From positions 92,688,802-92,752,801 of the forward strand of contig NC_089581.1 in the NCBI RefSeq assembly GCF_019320115.1: a DNA stretch of 64,000 bases, written 5' to 3'. The translations under genes and the position numbers were made by a program. The stretch comes from Miscanthus floridulus. Lineage: Eukaryota > Streptophyta > Magnoliopsida > Poales > Poaceae. The notes under the pieces are model-generated. The model was not told the DNA's origin. It searched no databases and was given only the letters and a program-made list of their open reading frames with translations. Shown in pieces: positions 43,681 to 58,895 of the stretch (positions within the stretch are counted from its first letter, which is position 1; each line of letters begins with the position of its first letter).

Positions 43681-44154
43681 TATGGGAGGTACGACCCTGG
43701 ATACCCACAATAGACCACATGAGCTATGCCCCCAGGGGAGGCCTAGCCTACAAGACGAAGCCTTGCGGGGCACGACTCTGCTCGACGCCTCTCGCAAGAC
43801 ATCTAGAAGATATCCTAAAGATACTATGAGATCTATTAGGATATATATGATTCCAAGATTCCTGTAATCAGTTATTACTTTCTGGTTATCTCTCAGATCT
43901 AACCGACTTGTAACCCTACTCCCCGGACTATATAAGATGGGTAGGGACCCCCTCCTGAACTCACACAATATCATACGATAGCTAATACAAACCAATAGAC
44001 CATAGGAGTAGGGTATTATGTCATACTGATGGCCTAAACCTGTCTAACTCGTGTGTCTCTGTTGCCTTCTTATTCTTGATCTCATGCTCCTCAGCCGATC
44101 AATCTACCTTCGTGGGATACCTCTCGGAGGACTGCCGACGATATTCTGTCGACA
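43681..44154 (+). repeat. 3' LTR of element D
   Basis: Begins TATGGGAGG (the first TG mutated to TA) and ends CTGTCGACA; 474 bp. It pairs with 31397-31869. Confidence 0.9.
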
Positions 44155-45465
44155 CTATGGATGCGACGAGTTGGGGCACTTTGTGAAAGTTTGTCCAAAC
44201 AAGCCCACACCCAAGACAAAGAAGAAGGCATGCAAGGACAAAGCCCTCACATCAATAAGGTCATGGGATGATTCTTCAAGTGAGGAAGAAGACCATCACA
44301 AGAGACGAGGGCACAAGCACTCATCATCAAGGACCTCACATGTATGCCTTATGGCACGAGGTAACAAAAAGTCTATCCCTAGTGATAGTGACAATAATAG
44401 TGATAGTGATGATGAGCTACCTTCTTATGATGAAATTGTGCAAGAAAATCTTAACTTTGCTAAAGTTTGCACTAGTCAACAAAAGAAGCTTGAAAAATTA
44501 AAAGAAAAACTAGATAGCTCACAACAAGCTTATGCTACTTTGCTTGAACAATATGAAACTTTTGCCAATCTTAATATGGAGCTATCTACTAAAATTGAGC
44601 AACTTGAGACTAGTGCAAACACAAATAATTGCACATTCAATGATGAGCAACTTGTAAAGAAAAATGAAAAATTAAAGAAAAAATTAGCTAGCTCACAAGA
44701 TGGTTATAAATGCTTGCTTACTAAAATGGAAACTATGTGCAAACATTGTGATGAGCTAACTAATAAAGTTGCTAATCTTGAAGCCATTGGTACAACCCCC
44801 ACCAAGGCACCTAAAAGAAAGGTTTAATTTTTGACATGACTAAAAATGATGCCTCTACTTCTTGCAATGATTTATGTTTAGACTCACCCTTGTGCAACCA
44901 AATTTGTGTTGAGAAAGTTGTTGTAGATATATGCACACAAGAGGTTGCAATGGAGATTGAGGAACTCAAGCAAGAAGTGGCTTGCCTCACCAAGGACTTG
45001 ACTCAAGTGAAAGGCAAGACAAAGCAAGCCCAACTTCATCAAGATAGCACTATCAAGGGAGTGAAGAAGCTTGATGAAGGACAAATCGTGGTTTGCTACA
45101 TATGCCACAAAGGAAGGCCACAAGTCCTATGAGTGCAAGGTGAATTATGGGGGAGGAGCAAAGAAGAAAGAGAAAAAGCAAACAAGCAAGCTCTCCAATA
45201 CCTACATAAACAAGGTGGACAAGAAGGCCTCCATGCTTTATCTCTTGAAAAAGAAGAAAAAATACAAGGTGGTGGCCATCAAGGTGAACAAGCAAGTCAA
45301 CAATGGGGTCAAACGCTTTTGGGTGCCAAAGGAAATCATTTCAAATATGAAGAGCAGCAAGAAGGTTTGGATCCTGAAAGGGAAGTGAGAAGTCTAATGG
45401 ACTTTAGGGAATTTAGAGACTTGGCAAAGTATGGGTGCATTTCATGGGGTGCATCACATTGAATC
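44155..45465 (+). pseudogene. gag of element C, part 2
   Basis: Resumes after D with the remainder of a CCHC zinc knuckle (DELGHFVKVC). It continues through a Lys/Ser-rich linker, a long coiled coil (QKKLEKLKEKLDSSQQAY... and DEQLVKKNEKLKKKLASSQ, 44480-44790), and a stop at 44827 with a frame change. A second coiled-coil part follows (EIEELKQEVACLTKDL, 44950). A second zinc knuckle (CYIC, 45095) is broken by a single-base frameshift before its His and last Cys. The end carries FWVPKEI and KKVWILKGK, then a stop. No protease follows. The layout is that of SIRE/Maximus-type Copia gag. Confidence 0.75.
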
Positions 45466-46109: not shown

Positions 46110-46114
46110 GGTAT
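46110..46114. repeat. Target-site duplication of E, left copy (GGTAT)
   Basis: GGTAT precedes the left LTR; its partner at 58891-58895 follows the right LTR, where element C sequence resumes. Confidence 0.92.
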
Positions 46115-49100
46115 TGTGGCAGAACCTCCTGAGAAATTGGGCCCACGTGCATCTATCATTGTCTCAACAGACCTTTGATAGCGTACACGAGTTCCCAACA
46201 ACTTAATAGATCTATCGGGTGTCCTCGGGAAACTCGAATCATCCACGATTCTTTTTCGAATAGGATCCCAATCACAGACATTGCAGATTACAACAGTTTA
46301 TTCAAATATATATATCAGAGTAAAAGATAGCAGAAGTCTTAAGATAACATAGTTTACAAACTAGTTGTTTTCAAACTTACAATACCATAAGTGTCATACA
46401 ACCATAGTAGCGGGATAATATTACATTAACATTATTTATTATACAAACTAGTGCCTTGTCCAAAGGCCATTCATCATTCCTCATCGTCATTGACTTCAAA
46501 CACAGACATGCAGCAGGGACCAAAACAAGCCTGCGCATGCGACTCACCTGCAACAAGGGTTAACAAACCCTGAGTACAAAAGTACTCAACAAGACTGACC
46601 CGATGAAAAAGGAGTTGAAGGACTTTTGAGATGCAGGTGTTGGGTCAAGGTAAGGATGTAGCAAGATTCAAAAGTTCTTTGCCAAAAGCTTACAATTCTT
46701 GATTCTATTTTCAAGTTTTACCCCTAAGTACTTTAGTTCATTATCTCAAACTAAGTGTCCATATCCCATATTCTAATCCTTCTCATTCCATTCCTTTTCT
46801 CAAATTTTAGTAATTCACTAGTCCTGCATTGCTTCTGTAATGAATCGAGTCTCCATATCCATGGAGCACCGGCAATTCGAATTGATTCAAGTCCTAGCTA
46901 GGGATTCCTTATCACACGACATATTTAGAACTTAATCTTGCATATATCAACCTTGCTACCGGATCCTCCTATACTAAGCCGTCTCCACACCACCCGAGAG
47001 CACAGCACACCTCAAATTCGGCCACATTCTAGCCACGAGGGTACATGCTACTCCTACCATCTCTCCACTCCTAGTATGTGGGCATTCGTCTTAGTATTGG
47101 ATTAGCCGAAGTAGGCTTACCAGAGTATGTGACCAGTACTACAAAGTGTCTCGTTCAGAAGATCCACAATGAGTGGCCTTTAAGCGACATAGTCGGCAAC
47201 ATTACCCAACATTCAAGATAAGTCACCCAACTAGTCTCTAGTTCATTCTACCTTCTTTCTTTCTTTGGCCAGCATGCCATCTTTGATTGTATCGAAACTT
47301 TTACTTTGAAAGCCTACCATAAAGCATACTAAGCATTCTATGCCTTTGTAAATGAAAACATCTTCAAGGATGGTAAACAATTAACAAGGTAGGCAATGTA
47401 TCAAGTAGGTAACATTTGAATTAATCAACTCAATGCAATAAGTAACATAGGTGATAAACTTTTCAAAGTAAATAAGGTAATGGTTTAATGCATAAACCGG
47501 GGCTTGCCTTTGTTGACGATCTTGGGTTCCGGATCAGTACCACAATTATTGAATCTCGAGGCAACCGGGGATCCTTCAACAACTTGCTCAACTAGGACCG
47601 ATTCACTCTCGGATTCTACATGAAATGATAATATATGCTTCAACATGATGATAATGTAAACATGATGCTTTCATGGTACATGAAATATAACAACACCTCG
47701 AATACAACTGTCTTTCACGGTACAGTTGCAAGCCAACAAAACTAACTTGCAATTCTACCATCAAGGACCACACATGTGACTTGACCAAACTGATCTTGAA
47801 ACCCTACTAGCCACAAAACATGACCAAAACAAGATCAAACACTAACCTAACACTTAGGGTTTGCTTTTATCCATTTTTGAATTAATTTGGAAATAAGCCC
47901 AAAATTGAACTTGTTCCAAATGACCTCAAAATTTTATGTAAGCTTCCTCATGACAAATTAGTGTACCAAAACAAATTTCATAATTTTTGAAGTTATACAG
48001 TGGCCTACAAAAATCATGGAAATCACATTCATCAATTAATTAACTAAATTTTTGAACATTAAAAATTTATTCAAATTTCAAGTTTCATATTTTTAAACCA
48101 TACTATAACATGTACAGAAGCTACACACAAATTTTCAGAATTTTTGGATCTATGATTATTTTCCTATAAATTCCCAAAGTTTCAGCACTATTCAAAATTC
48201 AAAAATAACCAAATCTCACTATTCTCTCTCTCTCACTGACAACCGGTCCCGCTCGTCAGTGACACAACACAGAGCATACGGCGGCGCTATCAGCTCTGGC
48301 CAGCAAAACGCGTCGGCGGTGAGGTTCCAACAAGACGGACTGCACCAGCACGACCTATGCCACCCCGCGAATCCATCCTAGCCCTCAGAACGGCAGCAGG
48401 CGCACCGGAGGGAGCTTCATGCCGGCCATGGCGGTGCGGGCATGACGGCGCATGACGTAACCACGACTATGATGAGTAGAGGCTAAAGCAAAGCAAGCAT
48501 CACGCTTAGGAGCTCACCACGATCACGCCAGTGTGCTTGGTGAAGACGGAGACGGGCTGGAACGACGTGGCCACGGTGAGGTCGATGGTGGCGGAGCTCC
48601 GGCTGGTCACGGGGAAGAACGCGTTGCGCCGAGCAATTCTGGCCAACCCAAGCGACGCGAGCAAGCCGAAAAGGAGCGCAAAGTCGAGGCGATCACACTG
48701 GTGTAGCTAGGCATGATGGATGTGGTTCGACGGCAGCTACGGCAAGCGGCGGAGCTGATCAGTGGCAGAACAGAGCAGAGGGGAAAATGGAGGACGACGG
48801 TGGCGGTGCTCCTATTTATAGCAGGGAAGAACGCACCCGGCGTCGACAGCTCATGCACGAGCTCGCCACGGAGCCTGCTGCGTGTCACCGTGTGAGAAAG
48901 TGGCGAAAATCGATCGGCGGCGGCAGCTGCGTGGCGCCGACGGCAAGCAGGGAGGTGGCGCTCGGCTGTCAACGAAAATTTTGAATTATTTATAGAATTG
49001 CCACTATGTTTATTTTGCAAATTACTCACAATTTTTGTAAAGAAGTTGAAAATCTCCAAAAATGAAAGTTGCTCAACTTTTCAAACTCTACAACTTTGCT

Positions 49101-49631
49101 TCAAGGAATATTTTCAAATTCTGCCTCCATTTTGAAATTTGAATTTGGGGTGCATTTGAACATTTGAATCATTTCAAAATTACTCCAAATTTTATATGTA
49201 AACTTTAAAAACTTTGAATACCAAAGTTGATCCTTATAAAATAAGCTTCAACTTTGCTTTTTGTCACAACCCCAAATTCCAAATGGATTTTGAATTAGAC
49301 AAAAGGGGCAAAAAGGACTTTTATGGTTTGAATTTGAATTCAAATTTGATTTGTATACCTTTTTACTTAACTTTGGTTTTTGACCAGTAACATGGCCCAT
49401 TAGGGTTACTTGAGTCAATTGACACATGGTCTCACATGATCACATGAAATTTGACCCTTGTGGTCATGATCTTTATTTAGAGTTTTGAATCACATCACAT
49501 AAAATAACAACATTATGAAATAAAGCTTATTTAGTGAATGCATTCAAAATTTTCTACTTTATGAATGCTTTGCAATGAATATGATGACATGTCAAGTTTT
49601 AGTGCTAGGTCAAAACACCAAAGGTGTTACA
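46115..49631 (-). repeat. 3' LTR of element E (left-hand copy)
   Basis: Printed from TGTGGCAGAACC to GGTGTTACA, 3,517 bp. It has AT-rich U3 (48960-49631), a GC-rich centre (about 48240-48960) with TATA, and long R/U5. An open stretch of 150 codons at 48607-49059 (minus) has no known domain. Confidence 0.92.
48812..48821 (-). promoter_or_regulatory. TATA box of the left E LTR
   Basis: Minus strand CTATAAATAG; identical at 58071-58080 in the other LTR. Confidence 0.7.
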
Positions 49632-49735: not shown

Positions 49736-52700
49736 CTAGTGAGGGGGTTTTCCATTCTTTTGACAAATGAGACAAGTTACAATATAGACAAGGTATTGCA
49801 AGTAGATAGAAGCGAAGAAGTCAGGAAAGTTTTCTTCTAAGTAATCCTCGGACTCCCAAGTAGCTTCATCTTCAGTGTGTTGATTCCATTGTACTTTGTA
49901 GAACTTGATTGTGCGTCTTTGCGTGACTCAATCTTTCTGATCTAAGACTCTAATGGGGTACTCGGCATAAGTCAAATCAAGTTCTAGTTCTACATCACCA
50001 AAGTCGATCACTTGGTCAGGTACTTGAAGACACTTCTTTAACTGAGATACATGGAAGATATCATGCACAGCTGACATGTGATCTCGTAGCTTGACGCGAT
50101 AGGCGACTAGTCCACATTGTTGTTGGATTTGAAAAGGACCGACATAACGGGGTGCCAACTTTCCCCAAATCCCAAATCGGTGAACTCCTTTCATCAGCGA
50201 CACCTTGAGGTAGACATGATCTCCCACTTTGAATTCTAGCGGTCGTCTCCTCTTATTAGCATAGCTTTTCTGCCAGGATTGAGCTACCTTCATATTGGCT
50301 TGTATGAGTTTAACTTTCTCTTCAGCTTCCTTGACCACATCTGGTCCAAAGAACCAATGTTCTCCAGCTTCTGACCAATTTAAAGGTGTCAGGCATCTAT
50401 GGCCATATAATGCTTCAAATGGTGCCATTTTAATGCTCTCTTAATGGCTATTGTTATATGAGAATTTAGCTAAGGGAAGGCATTCATCCCATTTAGCACC
50501 ATAGGAAAGGACACATGCTCTTAACATATCTTCAAGAATTTGATTTACCCTTTTAGTCTGTCCATCCATTTGCGGATGATAAGCAAAACTACAGATAAGT
50601 TTAGTTCCTAAAGACTCATGTAGACTTTTCTAAAACTTGGATATGAACAATGACCCTCTATCAGAGACAATGGTCTTGGGTGCTCCATGCAAACTGAAGA
50701 TTTTATCAAGATAAAGCTTTGCATACTGTTCCGCTTGATATTTATCTCTGACTGGTAGGAAGTGAGCTATCTTGGTTAGACGATCAACAATAACCCATAT
50801 TGAATTGTAGCCTGCAGGTGTCCTGGGCAATCCCACGATGAAGTCCACACAGATATCTTCCCACTTCCAAGATGGAACTAGCAATGAATGTAATGGACCT
50901 ATAGTCTTCATATGAACCGCTTTGACTCTCTGACAAATATCACACTTGGCCACATATTGAGCTATTTCTATTTTCATTTTGGTCCACCAATATCTCTTTC
51001 TCAGATCATGATACATTTTGTTGCTACCCGGATGAATGGAGTATCTTGTAGAATGAGCTTCATCAAGAATCTGCTTTCATAGCTCTGGACTTTTGGGTAC
51101 TACCAATCTATCCTTGAACCATACGACATCAGATTCATCAATATTGAAACATGTTGGTTTTCCAGATCTGACTTTATCTTTGATATGGGCTATACCCTTA
51201 CTTTTCTGTTGAGCAGCAATGATCTGATCTTTAATAGTGGACTCAACTGCAATATTGGACAAGGAACCTTGTTCTATGATTTGTAAATTCAGATGCTCCA
51301 TCTCTTGACACAATATTCGTTGCATAGGTTCTACAGTCAGACAATGGCAATGACTCTTGCAACTCAGGGCATTGGCAACCACATTAGCCTTGCCCGGATG
51401 ATAATGCACTTCTAAGTCATAATCTTTGTTAAGTTCTAACCATCTTCTTTGCCTCATATTCAACTCTAACTGAGTGAAGATGTATTTCAAACTTTTGTGA
51501 TCCGTATAGATATGACAGATATTGCCCAATAAATAATGTCGCCAAACCTTGAGTGCATGAACAATAGTAGCTAATTCAAGGTCATGGGTGGGATAATGTT
51601 CTTCATGCTTCTTGAGTTGTTTGGAAGCGTACGCTATGACCCTGCCTTCTAGCATAAGAACACAGCCAATACCAATTCCAGATGCATCATAATAGATATC
51701 AAACGGCCTCTCGATATCAGGTTGTGCTAATACTGGTGCAGTTGTTAGCAACTTCTTTAATGTTTGAAAGGCCTTCTCACATTCTGTTGACCATACAAAC
51801 TTAGTTTGATTTTTCAGTAGTCCAGTAATTGGCTTCGTAATTCTAGAGAAGTCAGGGATGAACCGACGATAATACCCTGCCAACCCTAGAAAGCTACGAA
51901 CTTGATGAACAGTGGTAGGTGCTTTCCAGTTAAGGACTTCTTCTACCTTGCTCGGATCAATAGCTATTCCTTCAGCAGATAACACATGACCCAAAAATTG
52001 TACTTCCTCTAACTAGAATGCACATTTACTGAATTTGGCATATAGTTGGTGGTCTCTTAATCTTTGTAGAACAATGCAGAGATGTTCCGCATGTTCCTCT
52101 TTGCTCTTAGAATAGATACGAATGTCATCAATGAACACCACTACAACCTTATCCAACTCGGGCATGAAAACTGAGTTCATCAGGTACATGAAATGAGCCA
52201 GGGCATTGGTCAGCCCAAAAGACATGACTAAATACTCATATAGACCATATCGGGTAGTAAACGCTGTCTTTGGCACATCTTCTCGTCTGATCTTAATCTA
52301 GTGATAGCTTGATCTCAAGTCTATCTTTGAGAACACCTTAGCTCCTGCAAGTTGATCAAAAAGCAAATCAATTCGGGGTAAGGGGTATTTGTTCTTTATG
52401 GTGACTTCATTTAATGGCCGATAGTCAACACATAACCTTAAGATTTGGTCCTTCTTCTTCACGAAGATAGCAGGGCATCCCCAAGGTGATGAACTGGGTT
52501 GAATGAAACCCTTGTCTAACAACTCTTGTAGTTGGATCTTTAATTCTGCTAATTCTTTGGGTGGCATCCTATATGCTCTTCTGGACATAGGTGCCATTCC
52601 TGGTTTTAGATCAATTATAAACTCTACATCTCGGTCTGGTGGCAGACTATGTAGATCATCGGGGAAGACATTCGTAAATTCACATACCACTAAAATTTTC

Positions 52701-54298
52701 TCGGCTTCTTCAACAGAAGTTGCATAGACTGTTTCAACCATACTCTTAGGAAAGGGAAGTTGGATGAGAAGTTGGGTTTTGCTATCAGGTGCATTTACCA
52801 TTATGGTTCTATGCAGGACATCTATGATAGCCCCATGTTGGGTTAACCAGTTCATACCAAGGATCACATTTATATCTTGATCCTTTAATATCAGCATATT
52901 GGTAGGGAACTCATAACCTCCCAAATCAATAGGTACATGCTAAACTACCTCCCTGATATAGATTCATCCCCCGAGCGACTGTATATGATATGGTTCTTTT
53001 GTTTCCTCAATAGTTATCCCATGCTTCATAACAAATGTACGATTGATGAATGTATGGGATGCACCAGAATCAAATAAGGTAATTGCAGGATGCTTAGCAA
53101 TGGGAAACATACCCATCATTACTAGTTCTCCTTCTAGAATAGCTTCCACCTGAGTATAGAAGACCCTTCCAGTTTTCTTCTTAGCCTGACCCTTCTAACC
53201 GTTCTGAGTATTGCCCTTGTACTGATTCTAAGCTTGAGGAATAGGGGCTTTAGGTGCATCAGGATTATTCTTCCTAGGATACGGACATTCTCAGGAAAAG
53301 TGTCCGGGTTTACCACAATTATAACATGGATAATTGTGATTTTGGGGAGTAGCATTGTGGTTTGCATTATTTGTATTATTTTGCTGCTATGGTGCTTGAT
53401 GAGGATAAGGCGTATTAGTTGTAGGGTGAATAAAAATTTGCTACCTGCTTTGGCTTTGTTGTGGGCGGAATGGCGCACGGCCATGATTCTAAGGATGGTA
53501 GACTATCTTTTGATGCTTTCCACTCGACGATCCAGAAGCAGATATTCTCTTTTTCTTCGCCTCCTTGTGTCGGCGGTAATTCTCCTCTGAAGCGATAGCA
53601 ATGTTGACTGTCTCATGATAAGTTGCATTGCCACAAGTTGCCATCATGGTCTGAAGTTTAGTGTTTAGGCCTCTAAGAAAATGATTCTTCTTCTTCTTGT
53701 TAGTATTCACATACTCTATAGCATACTGTGGTAGGTGGTTGAAACGCCCAACATAGTGCATCACCGGATGCTCCCCTTGCTTAAGAGCCAAGAACTCTTC
53801 TAACTTTATGGTCATCACACCATCTGGAATATAGTGTGCCCTGAAGGCATCCTTAAACTCCATCCAGGTGATTTGGTGACTAGCGGGCTATATAGCTACC
53901 AAATTTGCCCACTAGGCACCAGCAGCTCCTCGGAGTTGCTGTGCCGCAAACCTTGGTTTCTGAATCTCGGTACAGTGAATTAGCTCAAACTTTTGCTCTA
54001 TTGTCCTAAGCCAATCATCAGCTTCTAAAGGCTCTTCTGCCTTAGAGAACACATGCGGACGTGTGTCAGTAAAATCAACATAGGTTGACTCATCATTTCC
54101 ATTATTACAGTGGCCACGATTAGGGTGGGGTGCTTATTGATTCTGAGCCAATTCCCTTAACAACCTAGCATTCTCTGCCGTTGCGTTGATGAGTGCGGCT
54201 ATGGCATCTGCCATAGTCGAAGGCATTGGTGGAGGATTTGGGATATCATCATTGTCATGCGAGCAACTAGCACTAGCTCGGGTGATAGGACGAGGCAT
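49736..54298 (-). pseudogene. gag-pol of element E: one frame, about 17 stops
   Basis: From ATG 54298-54296 one frame of 1,521 codons runs to 49736 with no frameshift. Gag core: 53863-53500. Zinc knuckle: about 53330-53285 (CYNCGKPGHF, then a TGA inside the motif). Protease: FDSGASHTFI near 53070. RT: about 52550-52010, with [21 protein letters not shown] and the FIDDI box. RNase H: 51800-51450, with [11 protein letters not shown]. Integrase: 51010-50500, with a CX2C zinc end, then VDRLTK and SDRGSLF. The expected catalytic Glu is Lys (DGQTKRVN, about 50556). The integrase end (SAVHDIFHVSQLKKCL) is followed by a TGA and then a chromodomain (49925-49820). About 11 of 17 stops are TAG. The predicted polyprotein builds and integrates the element; inactive here. 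Confidence 0.88.
49805..49930 (-). pseudogene. Chromodomain at the C-terminus of E pol, cut off by a stop
   Basis: After the TGA at about 49928, the same frame continues with RTIKFYKVQWNQHTEDEATW and ESEDYLEENFPDFF. This is the chromodomain pattern (aromatic K-V-x-W near the start, then EATWE). In chromoviruses this module directs integration by binding chromatin marks. In this copy the stop separates it from integrase. Confidence 0.75.
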
Positions 54299-54459
54299 CT
54301 GTTAGAGAGACACGTTGATTTACATTATTATTTATTGAAAGCAGTTAAAAGGTTTCATGCTACAAAGGGTTACTTATTTAAATTACATGTCTTGTATCCC
54401 ACAAGACAACCCTAGGTTTACTAGGAAAGCAGTAAAGGAACTATTACTACTCCGAGCTC

Positions 54460-54997
54460 TCAGTCATCGGTGTCCGTGCCCATACCGGACAAAACCTCAT
54501 CTGCATCTGAGAAGTACACTAACTCCTTAGGATCCTCCTCCTCTTCTTCATTCTCGACTTCTCCTGGATCTACAATCATTTCTTCATCTGTAACTTCACC
54601 ATCCCCATGAGAAGGATGAAGTTGAGCGTACAACATGTGGACATTCTCATGAAGAATGGCATTGTCCATCTCCAGGTCTTCTACGTAGAACTCCAACTCA
54701 TGGACGTGTTCATTGGCCGCATCCTCTCGTGTCTAGGCTTCATTCCGTAGCTCCATGGTCATGGTGATGCCCCTTTGCATTTCTGCCAGCTCCTCTTGAT
54801 CTTTGGCATGAGCTCGACGAAGAAGTGTTGAGCTCCTTAGTAAGGTTCTCGATGTTGGTGGGATTGCTTGAAGATCCTTCATCTCCTTGAGTCTTGGAAC
54901 TTCCTTCACCAAGCTCATGGTTTCGTGGTGCCAACTGGTGATGAGGGACTCCGTGAGGTCCGGTGGACTTGCGTGTGGTTATCTTGGTCTTTGCCAT
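54460..54997 (-). pseudogene. ORF0 of element E: extra ORF upstream of gag, histone H3-tail-like N-terminus
   Basis: ATG at 54997-54995; end at 54460; about 178 codons across one frameshift (between about 54830 and 54780) and one TAG (54733-54735). The N-terminus is M-AKTKITTRKSTG, identical to the histone H3 tail at A1, T3, K4, T6, R8, K9, S10, T11 and G12, with QLA displaced by one. Then come a Ser-rich linker, a short coiled-coil-like part (KDQEELAEMQRGITMTMELRNEA) and a strongly acidic C-terminus (ENEEEEEDPKE). It lies between the PBS and gag, in the same direction as gag and separated from it by about 160 bp. Function unknown; see findings. Confidence 0.6.
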
Positions 54998-55382
54998 AGC
55001 CTATAGAAGTTAGGGTAGGACTATAAGAATAGCGCGAGAATAATGGAGGTTAGCAAGAATGGGATTGACATTACTTACCCAACCATTATTAAGGGGAATT
55101 ATTATGCAAGGTGTTCAAGCATGATGCATGAATCGATCTTATGAATCTAGGTACAAAAGATTTATATAATCAAAAGTACTAGATTTTTAGTACATAGGAC
55201 AAACCTAATCATATTATCCACCATGAACTTTCAAATAAGATAGGATTGAGTCTAGATCAAAGGTAAGAAGAAAGAAATTTGAACTCTAAAATATCGAGTT
55301 TACTTTCTTTGATCCAAATCAATTTGAAGGTTTTTCTAAGTAACCTACAATGATCTTAGATAGGAACCACTCTGATACCAGC
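54998..55382 (-). promoter_or_regulatory. Leader and Met-tRNA primer-binding site of element E
   Basis: The minus strand reads TGGTATCAGAGTGG (55380-55367), 2 bp from the LTR edge at 55383. It matches the initiator Met-tRNA complement for its first 11 bases. The rest of the leader up to ORF0 has no coding signal. Confidence 0.8.
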
Positions 55383-58300
55383 TGTGGCAGAACCTCCTGA
55401 GAAATCAGGCCCACGTGCATCTATCGTTGTCTCAACAGACCTTTGATAGCGTACACGAGTTCCCAACAACTTAATAGGTCTGTCGGGTGTCCTCGGGAAA
55501 CCCGAATCATCCACGATTCTTTTTCGAACAGCATCCCAATCACAGACATTGCAGATTACAACAGTTTATTCAAATATATATATCAGAGTAAAAGATAGCG
55601 GAAGTCTTAAGATAACATAGTTTACAAACTAGTTGTTTTCAAACTTACAATACCATAAGTGTCATACAACCATAGTAGCGGCATAATATTACATTAACAT
55701 TATTTATCATACAAACTAGTGCCTTATCCAAAGGCCATTCATCATTCCTCATCGTCATTGACTTCAAACACAGACATGCAGCAGGGACCAAAACAAGCCT
55801 ATGCATGTGACTCACCTGCAACAAGGGTTAACAAACCCTGAGTATAAAAGTACTCAACAAGACTGACCCGATGAAAAAGGGGTTGAAGGACTTTTGAGAT
55901 GCAGGTGTTGGGTCAAGGTAAGGATGTAGCAAGATGCAAAAGTTCTTTATCAAAAGCTTACTATTCTTGATTCTATTTTCAAGTTTTACCCCTAAGTACT
56001 TTAGTTCATTATCTCAAACTAAGTGTTCATATCCCATATTCTAATCCTTCTCATTCCATTCCTTTTCTCAAATTTTAGTAATTCATCAGTCCTGCATTGC
56101 TTCTGTAGTGAATCGAGTCTCCATATCCGTGGAGCACCGGCAATTCAAATTGATTCAAGTCCTAGCTGAGGATTCCTTATCACACGACATATGTAAAACT
56201 TAATCTTGCATATATCAACCTTGCTACCAGATCCTCCTATACTAAGCCATCTCCACGCCACCCAAGAGCACAGCACACCTCAAATCCAGCCACATTCTAG
56301 GCACGAGGGTACACGCTACTCCTACCATCTCTCCACTCCCAGTGCGTGGGCATTCATCTTAGTATCGGATTAGCCGATGTAGGCTTACTGGAGTATGTGA
56401 CCAGTACTACAAAGTGTCTCGTTCAGAAGATCCACAATGAGTGGCCTTTAAGCGACATAGTCGACAACATTACCCGACATTCAAGATAAGTCACCTGACT
56501 AGTCTCTAGTTCATTCTACCTTTTTTGTTTCTTTGGCCAGTATGCCATCATTGATTGTATCGAAACTTTTACTTTGAAAGCCTACCATAAAGCATACTAA
56601 GCATTCTACGCCTTTGTAAATGAAAACATCTTCAAGGATGGTAAACAATTAACAAGGTAGGCAATGTATCAAGTAGGTAACATTTGAATTAATCAACTTA
56701 ATGCAATAAGTAACATAGGTGATAAACTTTTCAAAGTAAACAAGGTACTGGTTTAATGCATAAACCGGGGCTTGCCTTCGTTGACGATCTCGGGTTCCGG
56801 ATCAGTACCACAATTATCGAATCCCAAGGCAACCGAGGATCCTTCAACAACTTGCTCAACTAGGATCGGTTCACTCTCGGATTCTACACGAAATGATAAC
56901 ATATGCTTCAACATGATGATAATGTAAACATGATGCTTTCATGGTACATGAAATATAACAACACCTCGAATACAACTGTCTTTCACGGTATAGTTGCAAG
57001 CCAACAAAACCAACTTGCAATTCTACCATCAAGGACCACACATGTGACTTGATCAAACTGATCTTGAAACCCTACTGGCCACAAAACATGACCAAAACAA
57101 GATCAAACACTAACCTAACACTTAGGGTTTGCTTTTATCCATTTTTGAATTAATTTGGAAATAAGCCCAAAAATGAACTTGTTCCAAATGACCTCAAAAT
57201 TTTATGTAAGCTTCCTCATGACAAAGTAGTGTAGTAAAACAAATTTCATAATTTTTGAAGTTATACAGTGGCCTACAAAAATCATGGAAATCACATTTAT
57301 CAATTAATTAACTAAATTTTTGAACATTAAAAATCTATTCAAATTTCAAGTTTCATATTTTTAAACCATACTAGAACATGTACAGAAGCTACACACAAAT
57401 TTTCAGAATTTTTGGAGCTATGATTATTTTCCTATAAATTCCCAAACTTTCAGCACTATTCAAAATTCAGAAATAACCAAATCTCACTATTCTCTCTCTC
57501 TCTCTCACACTAACAACCGGCCCCGCTCGTCAGTGACACAACACAGAGCATACGGCGGCGCTGTCAGCTCCGGCCAGCAAAATGCGTCGGCGGTGAGGTT
57601 CCGACAAGACGGACTGCACTAGCACGACCTATGCCACCCCGCGAATCCATCCCAACCCTCAGAACGGCAGCAGGCGCACCGAAGGGAGCTTCACGCCGGC
57701 CATGGCGGTGTGGGCACGACGGCGCACGGCGTAACCACGGCTACGATGCAGTAGAGGCTAAAGTGAAGCGAGCATCACGCTCAGGAGCTCACCACGATCA
57801 CGCCGGTGTGCTTGGTGAAGACGGAGATGGGCTAGAACGACGTGGCCACGGTGAGGTTGATGGTGGAGCTCCGGCCGGTCACGGCGAAGAACGCGTTGCG
57901 CTGGGCGATTCCGGCCAACCCAAGCGACGTGAGCAAGCCAAAGAGGAGCGCAAAGTTGAGGCGATCATGCTGGTGTAGCTAGGCACGATGGACGCAGTTC
58001 GACGGCGGCTACGACGAGCGGTGGCGGAACAGAGCAGAGGGGAAAACGGAGGACGACGGCGGCGGTGCTCCTATTTATAGCAGGGAAGAATGCACCCAGC
58101 GTCGACAGCTCACGCACGAGCTCGCCACGGAGCCTGCTGCGTGTCACCGCACGAGAAAGCAGTGAAAATCGATCAGCGGTGGCAGCTGCGTGGCACCGGC
58201 AGCAAGCAGGGAGGTGGCGCTCGACTGTCAACGAAAATTTTGAATTATTTATGGAATTGCCACTGCATTTATTTTGCAAATTACTCACAATTTTTGTAAA

Positions 58301-58890
58301 GAAGTTGAAAATCTCCAAAAATGAAAGTTGCTCAACTTTTCAAACTCTACAACTTTGCTTCAAGGAATATTTTCAAATTCTACCTCCATTTTGAAATTTG
58401 AATTTGGGGTGCATTTGAGCATTTGAATCATTTCAAAATTACTCCAAATTTTATATGTAAACTTTAAAAACTTTGAATACCAAAGTTGATCCTTATAAAA
58501 TAAGCTTCAACTTTGCTTTTTGTCACAACCCCAAATTCCAAATGGATTTTGAATTAGACAAAAGGAGCAAAAAGGACTTTTATGGTTTGAATTTGAATTC
58601 AAATTTGATTTGTATACCTTTTTACTTAACTTTGATTTTTGACCAGTAACATGGCCCATTAGGGTTACTTGAGTCAATTGACACATGGTCTCACATGATC
58701 ACATGAAATTTGACCCTTGTGGTCATGATCTTTATTTAGAGTTTTGAATCACATCACATAAAATAACAACATTATGAAATAAGGCTTATTTAGTGAATGC
58801 ATTCAAAATTTTCTACTTTATGAATGCTTTGCAATGAATATGATGACATGTCAAGTTTTAGTGCTAGGTCAAAACACCAGAGGTGTTACA
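55383..58890 (-). repeat. 5' LTR of element E (right-hand copy)
   Basis: Printed from TGTGGCAGAACC to GGTGTTACA, 3,508 bp, with 8 differences from the left copy in its first 163 bp, mostly transitions. TATA CTATAAATAG on the minus strand at 58071-58080. Confidence 0.92.
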
Positions 58891-58895
58891 GGTAT

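What the first reader, a model, noticed from the sequence alone, without database searches (positions are those of the whole stretch)
54740..54997. Histone H3-tail-like N-terminus in a retrotransposon ORF upstream of gag
Seen: the ORF0 product of chromovirus E begins AKTKITTRKSTG after the initiator Met. Against the plant H3 tail (ARTKQTARKSTG) it is identical at 9 of 12 positions (1, 3, 4, 6 and 8-12), so K4, the R8-K9-S10-T11 block and G12 are all there; QLA recurs one residue later than in H3. The rest is Ser-rich, coiled-coil-like and acidic, quite unlike a histone fold. Known: chromoviruses carry a chromodomain that reads chromatin marks, and the same element encodes one at its pol end. 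Inference: the ORF0 tail could act as a substrate or decoy for H3K4/K9 writers or readers, or could bind the element's own chromodomain. The short match could also be convergence of a basic leader.
Basis: partly seen in the sequence, partly recalled or inferred. Interest (0 to 1): 0.88.

Follow-up and report, generated by a model that had tools for sequence, protein, structure and literature searches.

The report
Retrotransposon protein with a histone-H3 tail
A very abundant family of grass jumping genes encodes a small extra protein whose first 25 residues look like a borrowed piece of the plant's own histone H3.3, kept while the rest of the protein diverged, which suggests it imitates or engages the machinery that reads or marks chromatin.

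Summary
ORF0 lies on the minus strand of a Tekay/Del-type chromovirus. The window copy is damaged (a 1-bp frameshift, a nonsense codon). Intact relatives in the same genome encode 176-178 aa (family 1) or 187-193 aa (family 2): a probably disordered tail, one long helix, an acidic end. Divergent ORF0s (about 30-55% identical) keep the tail; one begins ARTKQTARK, exactly as H3. A tail profile searched against solved structures returns histone H3 first (E=7.5e-7). With one inserted residue, the H3-like stretch equals the first coding exon of the nine H3.3-type genes read. Family-2 codons match H3.3 (P=0.0016), not H3.1; the window's family only weakly (P=0.11). I conclude descent from a captured H3.3 exon; function is inferred. 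K9 is kept in 195 of 195 proteins that could be aligned there (260 held); K4 is lost in a third family; K18 is replaced. Splice-site-like sequences flank ORF0, so ORF0 and gag-pol may be alternative splice products. ORF0 of such elements is known (Retrosat2/RIRE3/RIRE8, Gao 2012, modelled as enzymes); nine paper searches listed no report of the histone link.

The parts
54923..54997 (-). H3-like tail of ORF0, 25 codons (Met + 24), corresponding to H3.3 coding exon 1 with one inserted codon
54460..54997 (-). full ORF0 remnant (intact family-1 relatives 176-178 aa): tail, Ser-rich linker, long helix, acidic end; one frameshift and one nonsense codon in this copy
55001..55078 (-). putative leader intron: GTAAGT donor and TATAG acceptor ending 3 nt before the ORF0 ATG
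   Evidence: GTAAGT in 38 of 40, YAG acceptor in 38 of 40 family-1 copies
54299..54309 (-). putative second splice acceptor CTCTCTAACAG directly before the gag ATG
   Evidence: site found in 39 of 40 family-1 copies; 35 of 39 keep YAG|ATG
54331..54336 (-). AATAAA poly(A)-signal-like hexamer between ORF0 stop and gag start
53489..54298 (-). gag, starts MPRPITRASAS, damaged; capsid part hits PF03732
55370..55380 (-). primer binding site TGGTATCAGAG (iMet-type, recalled), beginning 383 nt upstream of the ORF0 ATG
55383..58890 (-). 5' LTR
46115..49631 (-). 3' LTR; target-site duplication ATACC at 46110-46114 and 58891-58895
49928..52924 (-). pol remnants: protease, RT, RNase H, integrase pieces, several frame breaks
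49748..49927 (-). chromodomain piece at the integrase C-terminus, behind an in-frame stop
   Evidence: PF00385, E 1.2e-5, 25.5 bits against a cut-off of 25.1

Best explanation
ORF0 is an accessory gene of a grass Tekay/Del chromovirus lineage (probably the Retrosat2/RIRE3/RIRE8 kind). Its first 25 codons descend from the first coding exon of a host H3.3 gene, taken up together with, or placed behind, a splice acceptor and joined to a coiled-coil and an acidic end (descent: supported; route of capture: inferred). ORF0 and gag-pol are probably made by alternative splicing from one leader donor (splice-site-like sequences seen, splicing not shown). The protein is probably a coiled-coil oligomer (inferred) displaying several H3-like tails in which R8-K9 and R17 mostly stay H3-like while K18 has become His and K23 mostly Arg. 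The most likely function (inferred) is histone mimicry: the tails engage a host factor of the H3K9 writer/reader axis, either to tether the retrotransposon complex to that chromatin or to compete with silencing.
For: H3 is the top hit by blind sequence search. Same start and same extent as H3.3 exon 1 (24 codons, then GT) in 9 of 9 gene copies read; T31/Y41 in those 9 and A31/F41 in the 8 H3.1 copies. Family-2 commonest codons match H3.3 (seven copies, L085-L091) at 11 of 16 vs 6.2 expected (P 0.0016), H3.1 3 of 16 vs 3.5. Tail is the most conserved block between families: pN 0.19 vs 0.58, 0.35, 0.42, dN/dS 0.17; 10 of 11 invariant columns among 21 diverse ORF0s lie in residues 10-24. K9 195 of 195 and R8 176 of 195, aligned by a downstream anchor. 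Low-confidence tail (1-37), one helix 38-133, low-confidence acidic end. Splice-site-like sequences. Purifying selection on ORF0 as a whole, dN/dS 0.31.
Against: No binding, methylation, transcript or protein data. K4 is lost in family 3 (104 of 107 Arg), whose tail also starts one residue earlier (MPPRT); R2 is Lys in the window's family; A7 is Pro in family 2, which should hurt canonical chromodomain binding (recalled). Within families, residues 2-13 are not specially constrained (dN/dS 0.86 and 0.80, few codons, wide interval). Family-1 codons match H3.3 only weakly (8 of 15 vs 5.5, P 0.11), and the codon test was devised after seeing the data and left out two GC-rich H3.3 copies (L092, L093). 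Residues 13-25 are as conserved as the H3-like core yet partly un-H3-like (P13, inserted G, H18, P22); in a 29-sequence set that includes truncated members the invariant columns are G16-V17-P18-H20-Q21-L22-A23 and L133, without K9. Three listed proteins (P0102, P0113, P0117) lack the first ten residues as called, and P0114 and P0260 the first few. The window ORF alone does not reach H3 in the PDB.
Confidence: 0.55

Rival explanations
1. The tail is H3-derived but serves as a nuclear import signal: H3 tails bind importins (recalled), and ORF0 would carry the retrotransposon complex into the nucleus, without engaging chromatin marks.
For: The tail stays basic in the families read; H3 tails act as import signals (recalled). 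Loss of K14, K18 and K23 need not matter if Arg or His keep charge.
Against: A plain import signal would not need K9 at 195 of 195, nor the near-invariant GVPRHQLAP.
Confidence: 0.2
2. The tail was captured from H3.3 but has been re-purposed for an element-internal job (binding gag, RNA or the integrase chromodomain); its H3 likeness is now only ancestry.
For: Residues 13-25 with P13, G, H18, P22 are as invariant as the H3-like part; A7P and K4R occur; the element has a chromodomain piece and the partner of type II chromodomains is unidentified in the passages read.
Against: R8-K9 with T6 and G12 are among the features best kept.
Confidence: 0.17
3. Chance or convergence of a short basic leader.
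For: The window ORF alone has no PDB hit at E<=10; its best shuffle scores 51 against 54; family-1 codon agreement is weak.
Against: Blind searches with other families give H3 first at E 0.0026 and 7.5e-7; exon-bounded match; codon match in family 2.
Confidence: 0.05
4. ORF0 encodes a metabolic enzyme or transporter (hydrolase, acyltransferase, glycerol-phosphate antiporter), as modelled for Retrosat2 relatives.
For: Published homology models (PMC3485330, sections 9, 10 and 14 read).
Against: No Pfam match above its curated cut-off in the window ORF, P0116, P0108 or P0134; the predicted structure is one long helix between low-confidence ends.
Confidence: 0.01

Closest known systems
ORF0 of Retrosat2, RIRE3, RIRE8, SorSat2, ZmSat2 (Gao et al. 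2012, PMC3485330; abstract and sections 9, 10, 14 read)
   Same: Grass elements with LTRs of about 3 kb and an extra ORF besides the gag-pol ORF; Retrosat-2 is filed under Tekay/Del (PMC6317226 passage). Very likely the same gene family.
   Different: The word histone does not occur in that text and ORF0 is modelled as enzymes.
PAF15 H3-mimic and LIG1 K9-mimic (UHRF1/DNMT1 pathway; PMC8594673 passages)
   Same: Non-histone proteins with an H3-tail-like segment used by H3 readers or writers.
   Different: Host proteins, not mobile elements; the interaction is reported there and only inferred here.
Viral H3 mimics: influenza NS1, SARS-CoV-2 ORF8 (recalled; an ORF8 paper is in the listing)
   Same: A parasite protein with an ARKS/ARSK-like motif.
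   Different: Motifs of a few residues (recalled); here about 24 residues from the N-terminus, probably by descent from the host exon.
Additional ORFs (aORFs) of plant LTR retrotransposons (Vicient and Casacuberta 2020, PMC7264820, passages read)
   Same: Extra conserved ORFs of unknown role.
   Different: Those discussed in the passages lie mainly between pol and the 3' LTR; 'Retrosat2', 'ORF0', 'Tekay' and 'histone' do not occur in that text.

Membership tests
Tekay/Del chromovirus (Ty3/gypsy) | LTRs, iMet-type PBS, gag-pol with integrase before a C-terminal chromodomain | tested here: met
   LTR pair, TSD, PBS; gag, RT-RNase H, integrase and chromo Pfam hits
Tekay/Del chromovirus (Ty3/gypsy) | RT phylogeny inside Tekay | not tested
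   No RT tree built; clade assigned from the chromodomain, long LTRs and ORF0
Retrosat2/RIRE3/RIRE8 ORF0 group | Grass element, LTR about 3 kb or more, ORF0 upstream of gag-pol | tested here: met
   3.5-kb LTRs, ORF0 before gag; that the host is a grass is inference
Retrosat2/RIRE3/RIRE8 ORF0 group | Sequence homology to their ORF0 | not testable with these tools
   No plant sequence collection at hand; no ORF0 sequence in the sections read
Histone H3 | Histone fold domain | tested here: not met
   Only tail-like residues 1-25, then a long helix and acidic end; no Pfam histone hit
H3-tail mimic | Sequence resemblance to the H3 tail beyond chance | tested here: met
H3-tail mimic | Bound or modified by H3-tail factors | not testable with these tools
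   needs peptide assays
Captured host exon | Nucleotide-level relation to the host gene and exon-bounded extent, family 2 | tested here: met
   Family 2 codons P 0.0016; extent = exon 1; post hoc test
Captured host exon | The same codon relation in the window's own family 1 | tested here: inconclusive
   8 of 15 vs 5.5 expected, P 0.11

The most novel reading that the evidence does not exclude
A lineage of grass retrotransposons captured the first coding exon of H3.3 and turned it into a multivalent soluble H3K9-tail mimic that is methylated by the host's own H3K9 methyltransferase and then bound by the element's own type II chromodomain, giving that orphan chromodomain a partner encoded in cis, or that titrates host silencing factors.
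Probability: 0.15. Interest if true: 0.96.

Novelty: new variant of a known kind. Interest (0 to 1): 0.86.

Why it matters
ORF0 of these abundant grass elements has had no accepted function in the literature I could read. If it carries a captured H3.3 exon, it would be, to my knowledge, the first histone-tail mimic encoded by a retrotransposon, and it makes two open questions testable with short peptides: what type II chromodomains of plant chromoviruses bind, and how such elements deal with H3K9-based silencing. It would also replace a published enzymatic annotation.

Tried and rejected
Two scans of viral contigs confirmed no relatives. Pfam and PDB searches with the damaged window ORF gave nothing. 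The 85-aa frameshifted form does not look like a shared subfamily: in the copies read the shifts lie at different places, and such copies were enriched because the query itself was frameshifted. My first count of K9 in family 3 (98 of 98) was circular because the pattern demanded K there; one search replaced it, using only a downstream anchor (residues 17-24). In one search, 62 of 260 proteins were dropped for lack of the anchor within the first 60 residues (38 of 99, 24 of 53, 0 of 108); the 24 I read start downstream of the tail or are frameshifted there, the 38 I did not inspect one by one. Of the 198 kept, 195 reach back to the K9 position. P0108- and P0134-type ORF0s were sought in the genome: the best of 150 scored places each reached 52% and 43% identity, at places that include known family-1 and family-2 copies, so I saw no member of those types; lower-ranked candidates were not scored. 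The enzyme reading of ORF0 was rejected on the fold. I did not test transcripts, a chromodomain-tail complex, or an RT tree.

Full report
What is there. The element is on the minus strand, bounded by LTRs at 46115-49631 and 55383-58890 (95.0% identical; K2P 0.046 over 3501 sites, about 1.8 My at 1.3e-8 per site per year, a recalled rate), with a 5-bp duplication ATACC at both ends, an iMet-type PBS and a purine tract (read). Pol pieces hit protease, RT, RNase H and integrase models, and the integrase end carries a chromodomain piece (PF00385, E 1.2e-5, 25.5 bits against a cut-off of 25.1) behind an in-frame stop. The copy is broken in gag, pol and ORF0.

ORF0. It starts at 54997, 383 nt after the start of the PBS. 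In the window it has a +1 shift near residue 58 and a nonsense codon further on; the remnant ends at 54460. The host assembly is held as G000 (2.68 Gb; 19 chromosome-size contigs by the lengths and numbers seen; a Miscanthus-like grass is my inference). Its first-look list for this ORF had 5,495 candidates, of which 150 were scored and all 150 matched at E <= 0.001. I took 40 copies, open ones first and all with the match starting at residue 1; 26 are intact at 176-178 aa. Over these 26, dN/dS is 0.31 (column bootstrap 5-95%: 0.25-0.42) for the whole ORF, and 0.31 (0.15-0.81) for residues 2-25, so ORF0 as a whole is a maintained gene; picking open copies favours that result somewhat.

Relatives. 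A protein search with the window ORF found 44 close relatives. A profile of the 26 intact copies found 220 proteins at E <= 0.01, 120 listed, including families about 37-47% identical over most of their length. One such kind is a second family in the same genome (query P0116: 12,210 first-look candidates, 150 scored, 38-46% identical); 28 of its copies were read, 22 of them open at 187-193 aa. Its gag start reads like that of the window element (by eye). A third family (P0134 type) filled most of the list of a further search (1,981 proteins at E <= 0.01, 120 listed); in this genome the best of 150 scored places reached only 43% to it. Its host is unknown to me.

The tail against H3. Identity to H3 residues 1-23, with one inserted residue after K14: window 13, family-1 copy L009 15, family-2 copies L055 and L058 15, P0106 16, P0116 17. 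P0116 begins ARTKQTARK, as H3 does. Searching 177,635 distinct PDB sequences with the first 39 residues of P0106 gave 126 hits at E <= 10; the 60 shown are all H3 or H3 variants, best 0.0026. The full P0116 protein gave 163 hits, the 60 shown being H3 or H3-tailed chimeras mixed with a coiled-coil of PI3-kinase; the best, an H3-tailed chimera, has E 0.0062. A ten-sequence profile, leaving P0116 out, gave 143 hits, best 7.5e-7, the 60 shown being H3 or H3-tailed chimeras. The window ORF alone gave none.

H3.3 exon 1. I searched G000 with H3 (97 matches among 150 scored) and read 17 gene copies. Nine have introns and T31 and Y41, the H3.3 residues (recalled); eight have A31 and F41, as H3.1. In all nine the first coding exon, inferred from the end of homology and a GT, is ATG plus 23 codons, ending AAG|GT; in five of the nine AG directly precedes the ATG, most clearly the TGCAG of L087-L089, so an upstream intron is likely there. 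The ORF0 similarity covers this exon plus one codon. Over positions with the same residue, family 2's commonest codons equal the commonest codon of seven H3.3 copies (L085-L091) at 11 of 16 (6.2 expected from ORF0's own codon use; P 0.0016) but the H3.1 codon at 3 of 16 (3.5 expected). Family 1 gives 8 of 15 for H3.3 (5.5 expected, P 0.11) and 4 of 15 for H3.1 (3.3 expected). The two GC-rich H3.3 copies L092 and L093 were left out of that test; over all nine, mean codon identity is 0.54 (family 2) and 0.51 (family 1), against 0.29 for both with H3.1. Eleven of 28 family-2 copies open ATGGCTCGTACCAAG, base for base as in H3.3 copies L087-L089. This favours descent from H3.3 over convergence, though the test is small and was thought of after seeing the data.

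What is conserved. Between families 1 and 2, pN is 0.19 in residues 2-25 against 0.58, 0.35 and 0.42 in the other three stretches; dN/dS of the tail is 0.17. Among 21 diverse ORF0s, 10 of 11 invariant columns lie in residues 10-24; in 29, including truncated members, 7 of 8 lie in residues 16-23 and K9 is not among them. With an anchor that says nothing about residues 1-13, K9 is kept in 61 of 61, 26 of 26 and 108 of 108 proteins; R8 in 52 of 61, 22 of 26, 102 of 108; K4 in 61 of 61, 18 of 25, but only 3 of 107 of the third family, where it is Arg in 104; K18 is His in 59 of 61, 29 of 29, 107 of 108 (62 of 260 proteins had no anchor and were dropped). Family 2 has Pro at A7 in 26 of 28 copies and Ala at T3 in 10 of 28. 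Within families, residues 2-13 are not unusually constrained (dN/dS 0.86 and 0.80).

Shape. AlphaFold on 29 sequences gives low confidence for residues 1-37 (block means 56-69), one helix at 38-133 (block means 93-98 over residues 41-130) and low confidence for the acidic end, with pTM 0.43; I read the ends as disordered and the helix as a coiled coil. The acidic end carries hydrophobic-acidic runs (VVVIDDD, VINISDDEEVIYISDD, ELVMIDESD, ELVYFSDEDE) that resemble SUMO-interacting motifs; that resemblance is recalled, not tested.

Expression anatomy. In family 1 a GTAAGT donor (38 of 40; the other two GTAAGA) and a YAG three bases before the ORF0 ATG (38 of 40) frame a stretch of 78 nt in the window; a second acceptor-like YAG sits directly before the gag ATG in 35 of the 39 copies where the site was found. 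In family 2 a YAG lies one base before the ORF0 ATG in 27 of 28; a GTGAGT or GTGAGA lies 91-92 nt upstream in the five copies examined, beside other possible donors; and the gag ATG follows an AG in five of the six copies printed, L057 having CGG. An AATAAA lies between ORF0 and gag in 25 of 26 and 27 of 28 copies, against 0.18 and 0.10 in shuffles; relatedness of copies inflates such counts. I infer that ORF0 and gag-pol are alternative splice products. No transcript was seen.

What is known. Gao et al. 2012 (PMC3485330; abstract and sections 9, 10, 14 read) describe ORF0 in Retrosat2, RIRE3, RIRE8 and maize, sorghum and Brachypodium relatives, find it only in grasses, suggest a frameshift or capture of unrelated DNA as origin, and model it as hydrolases and others. 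The word histone does not occur in the text. Nine paper searches (listings), with passages or sections of PMC3485330, PMC7264820, PMC6317226, PMC3350952, PMC8594673 and PMC11963269, showed no report of an H3-like ORF0. The library lacks most subscription papers, among them probably the original RIRE3/RIRE8 papers (recalled), so absence from print is not proven. The partner of type II chromodomains is described as unidentified (passages).

Verdict. Descent of the tail from an H3.3 exon I hold at about 0.8; present use as an H3 mimic in some sense at about 0.55; the element-internal loop with its own chromodomain, or a decoy role shown to matter, at about 0.15.

Noticed in passing
G000 contig C2259, ORF0 matches at 43858, 49922, 55986 (+) and 56860 (-): Three ORF0 copies spaced exactly 6064 bp apart, then one inverted: perhaps a tandem array made from part of this retrotransposon; the spacing is shorter than the 9.27-kb LTR spacing of the window element.
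   Followed up: no
P0044, P0020: ORF0 N-termini fused in frame to sequence that also occurs in the window element's pol frames: internal deletions between ORF0 and pol in some copies.
   Followed up: no
ORF0 C-terminus, e.g. L009, L055, P0116, P0108: Hydrophobic-acidic runs that resemble SUMO-interacting motifs in several divergent families (recalled resemblance).
   Followed up: no
window 54299-54460 (-) and family-2 loci between ORF0 and gag: The region between ORF0 and gag looks like a plant gene 3' end (TGTAA, AATAAA), so ORF0 may have its own poly(A) site inside the element.
   Followed up: partly
window 44051-44827 (+): An ORF with a zinc-knuckle-like run (CRHYGCDELGHFVKVCPNK) and coiled-coil-like sequence, perhaps gag of another retroelement.
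   Followed up: no
P0102, P0113, P0117: ORF0-like proteins called from an internal Met at the GPKGVP block (GTKGVP in P0117), lacking the H3-like first half as called; may be a truncated subfamily or a gene-calling artefact.
   Followed up: no
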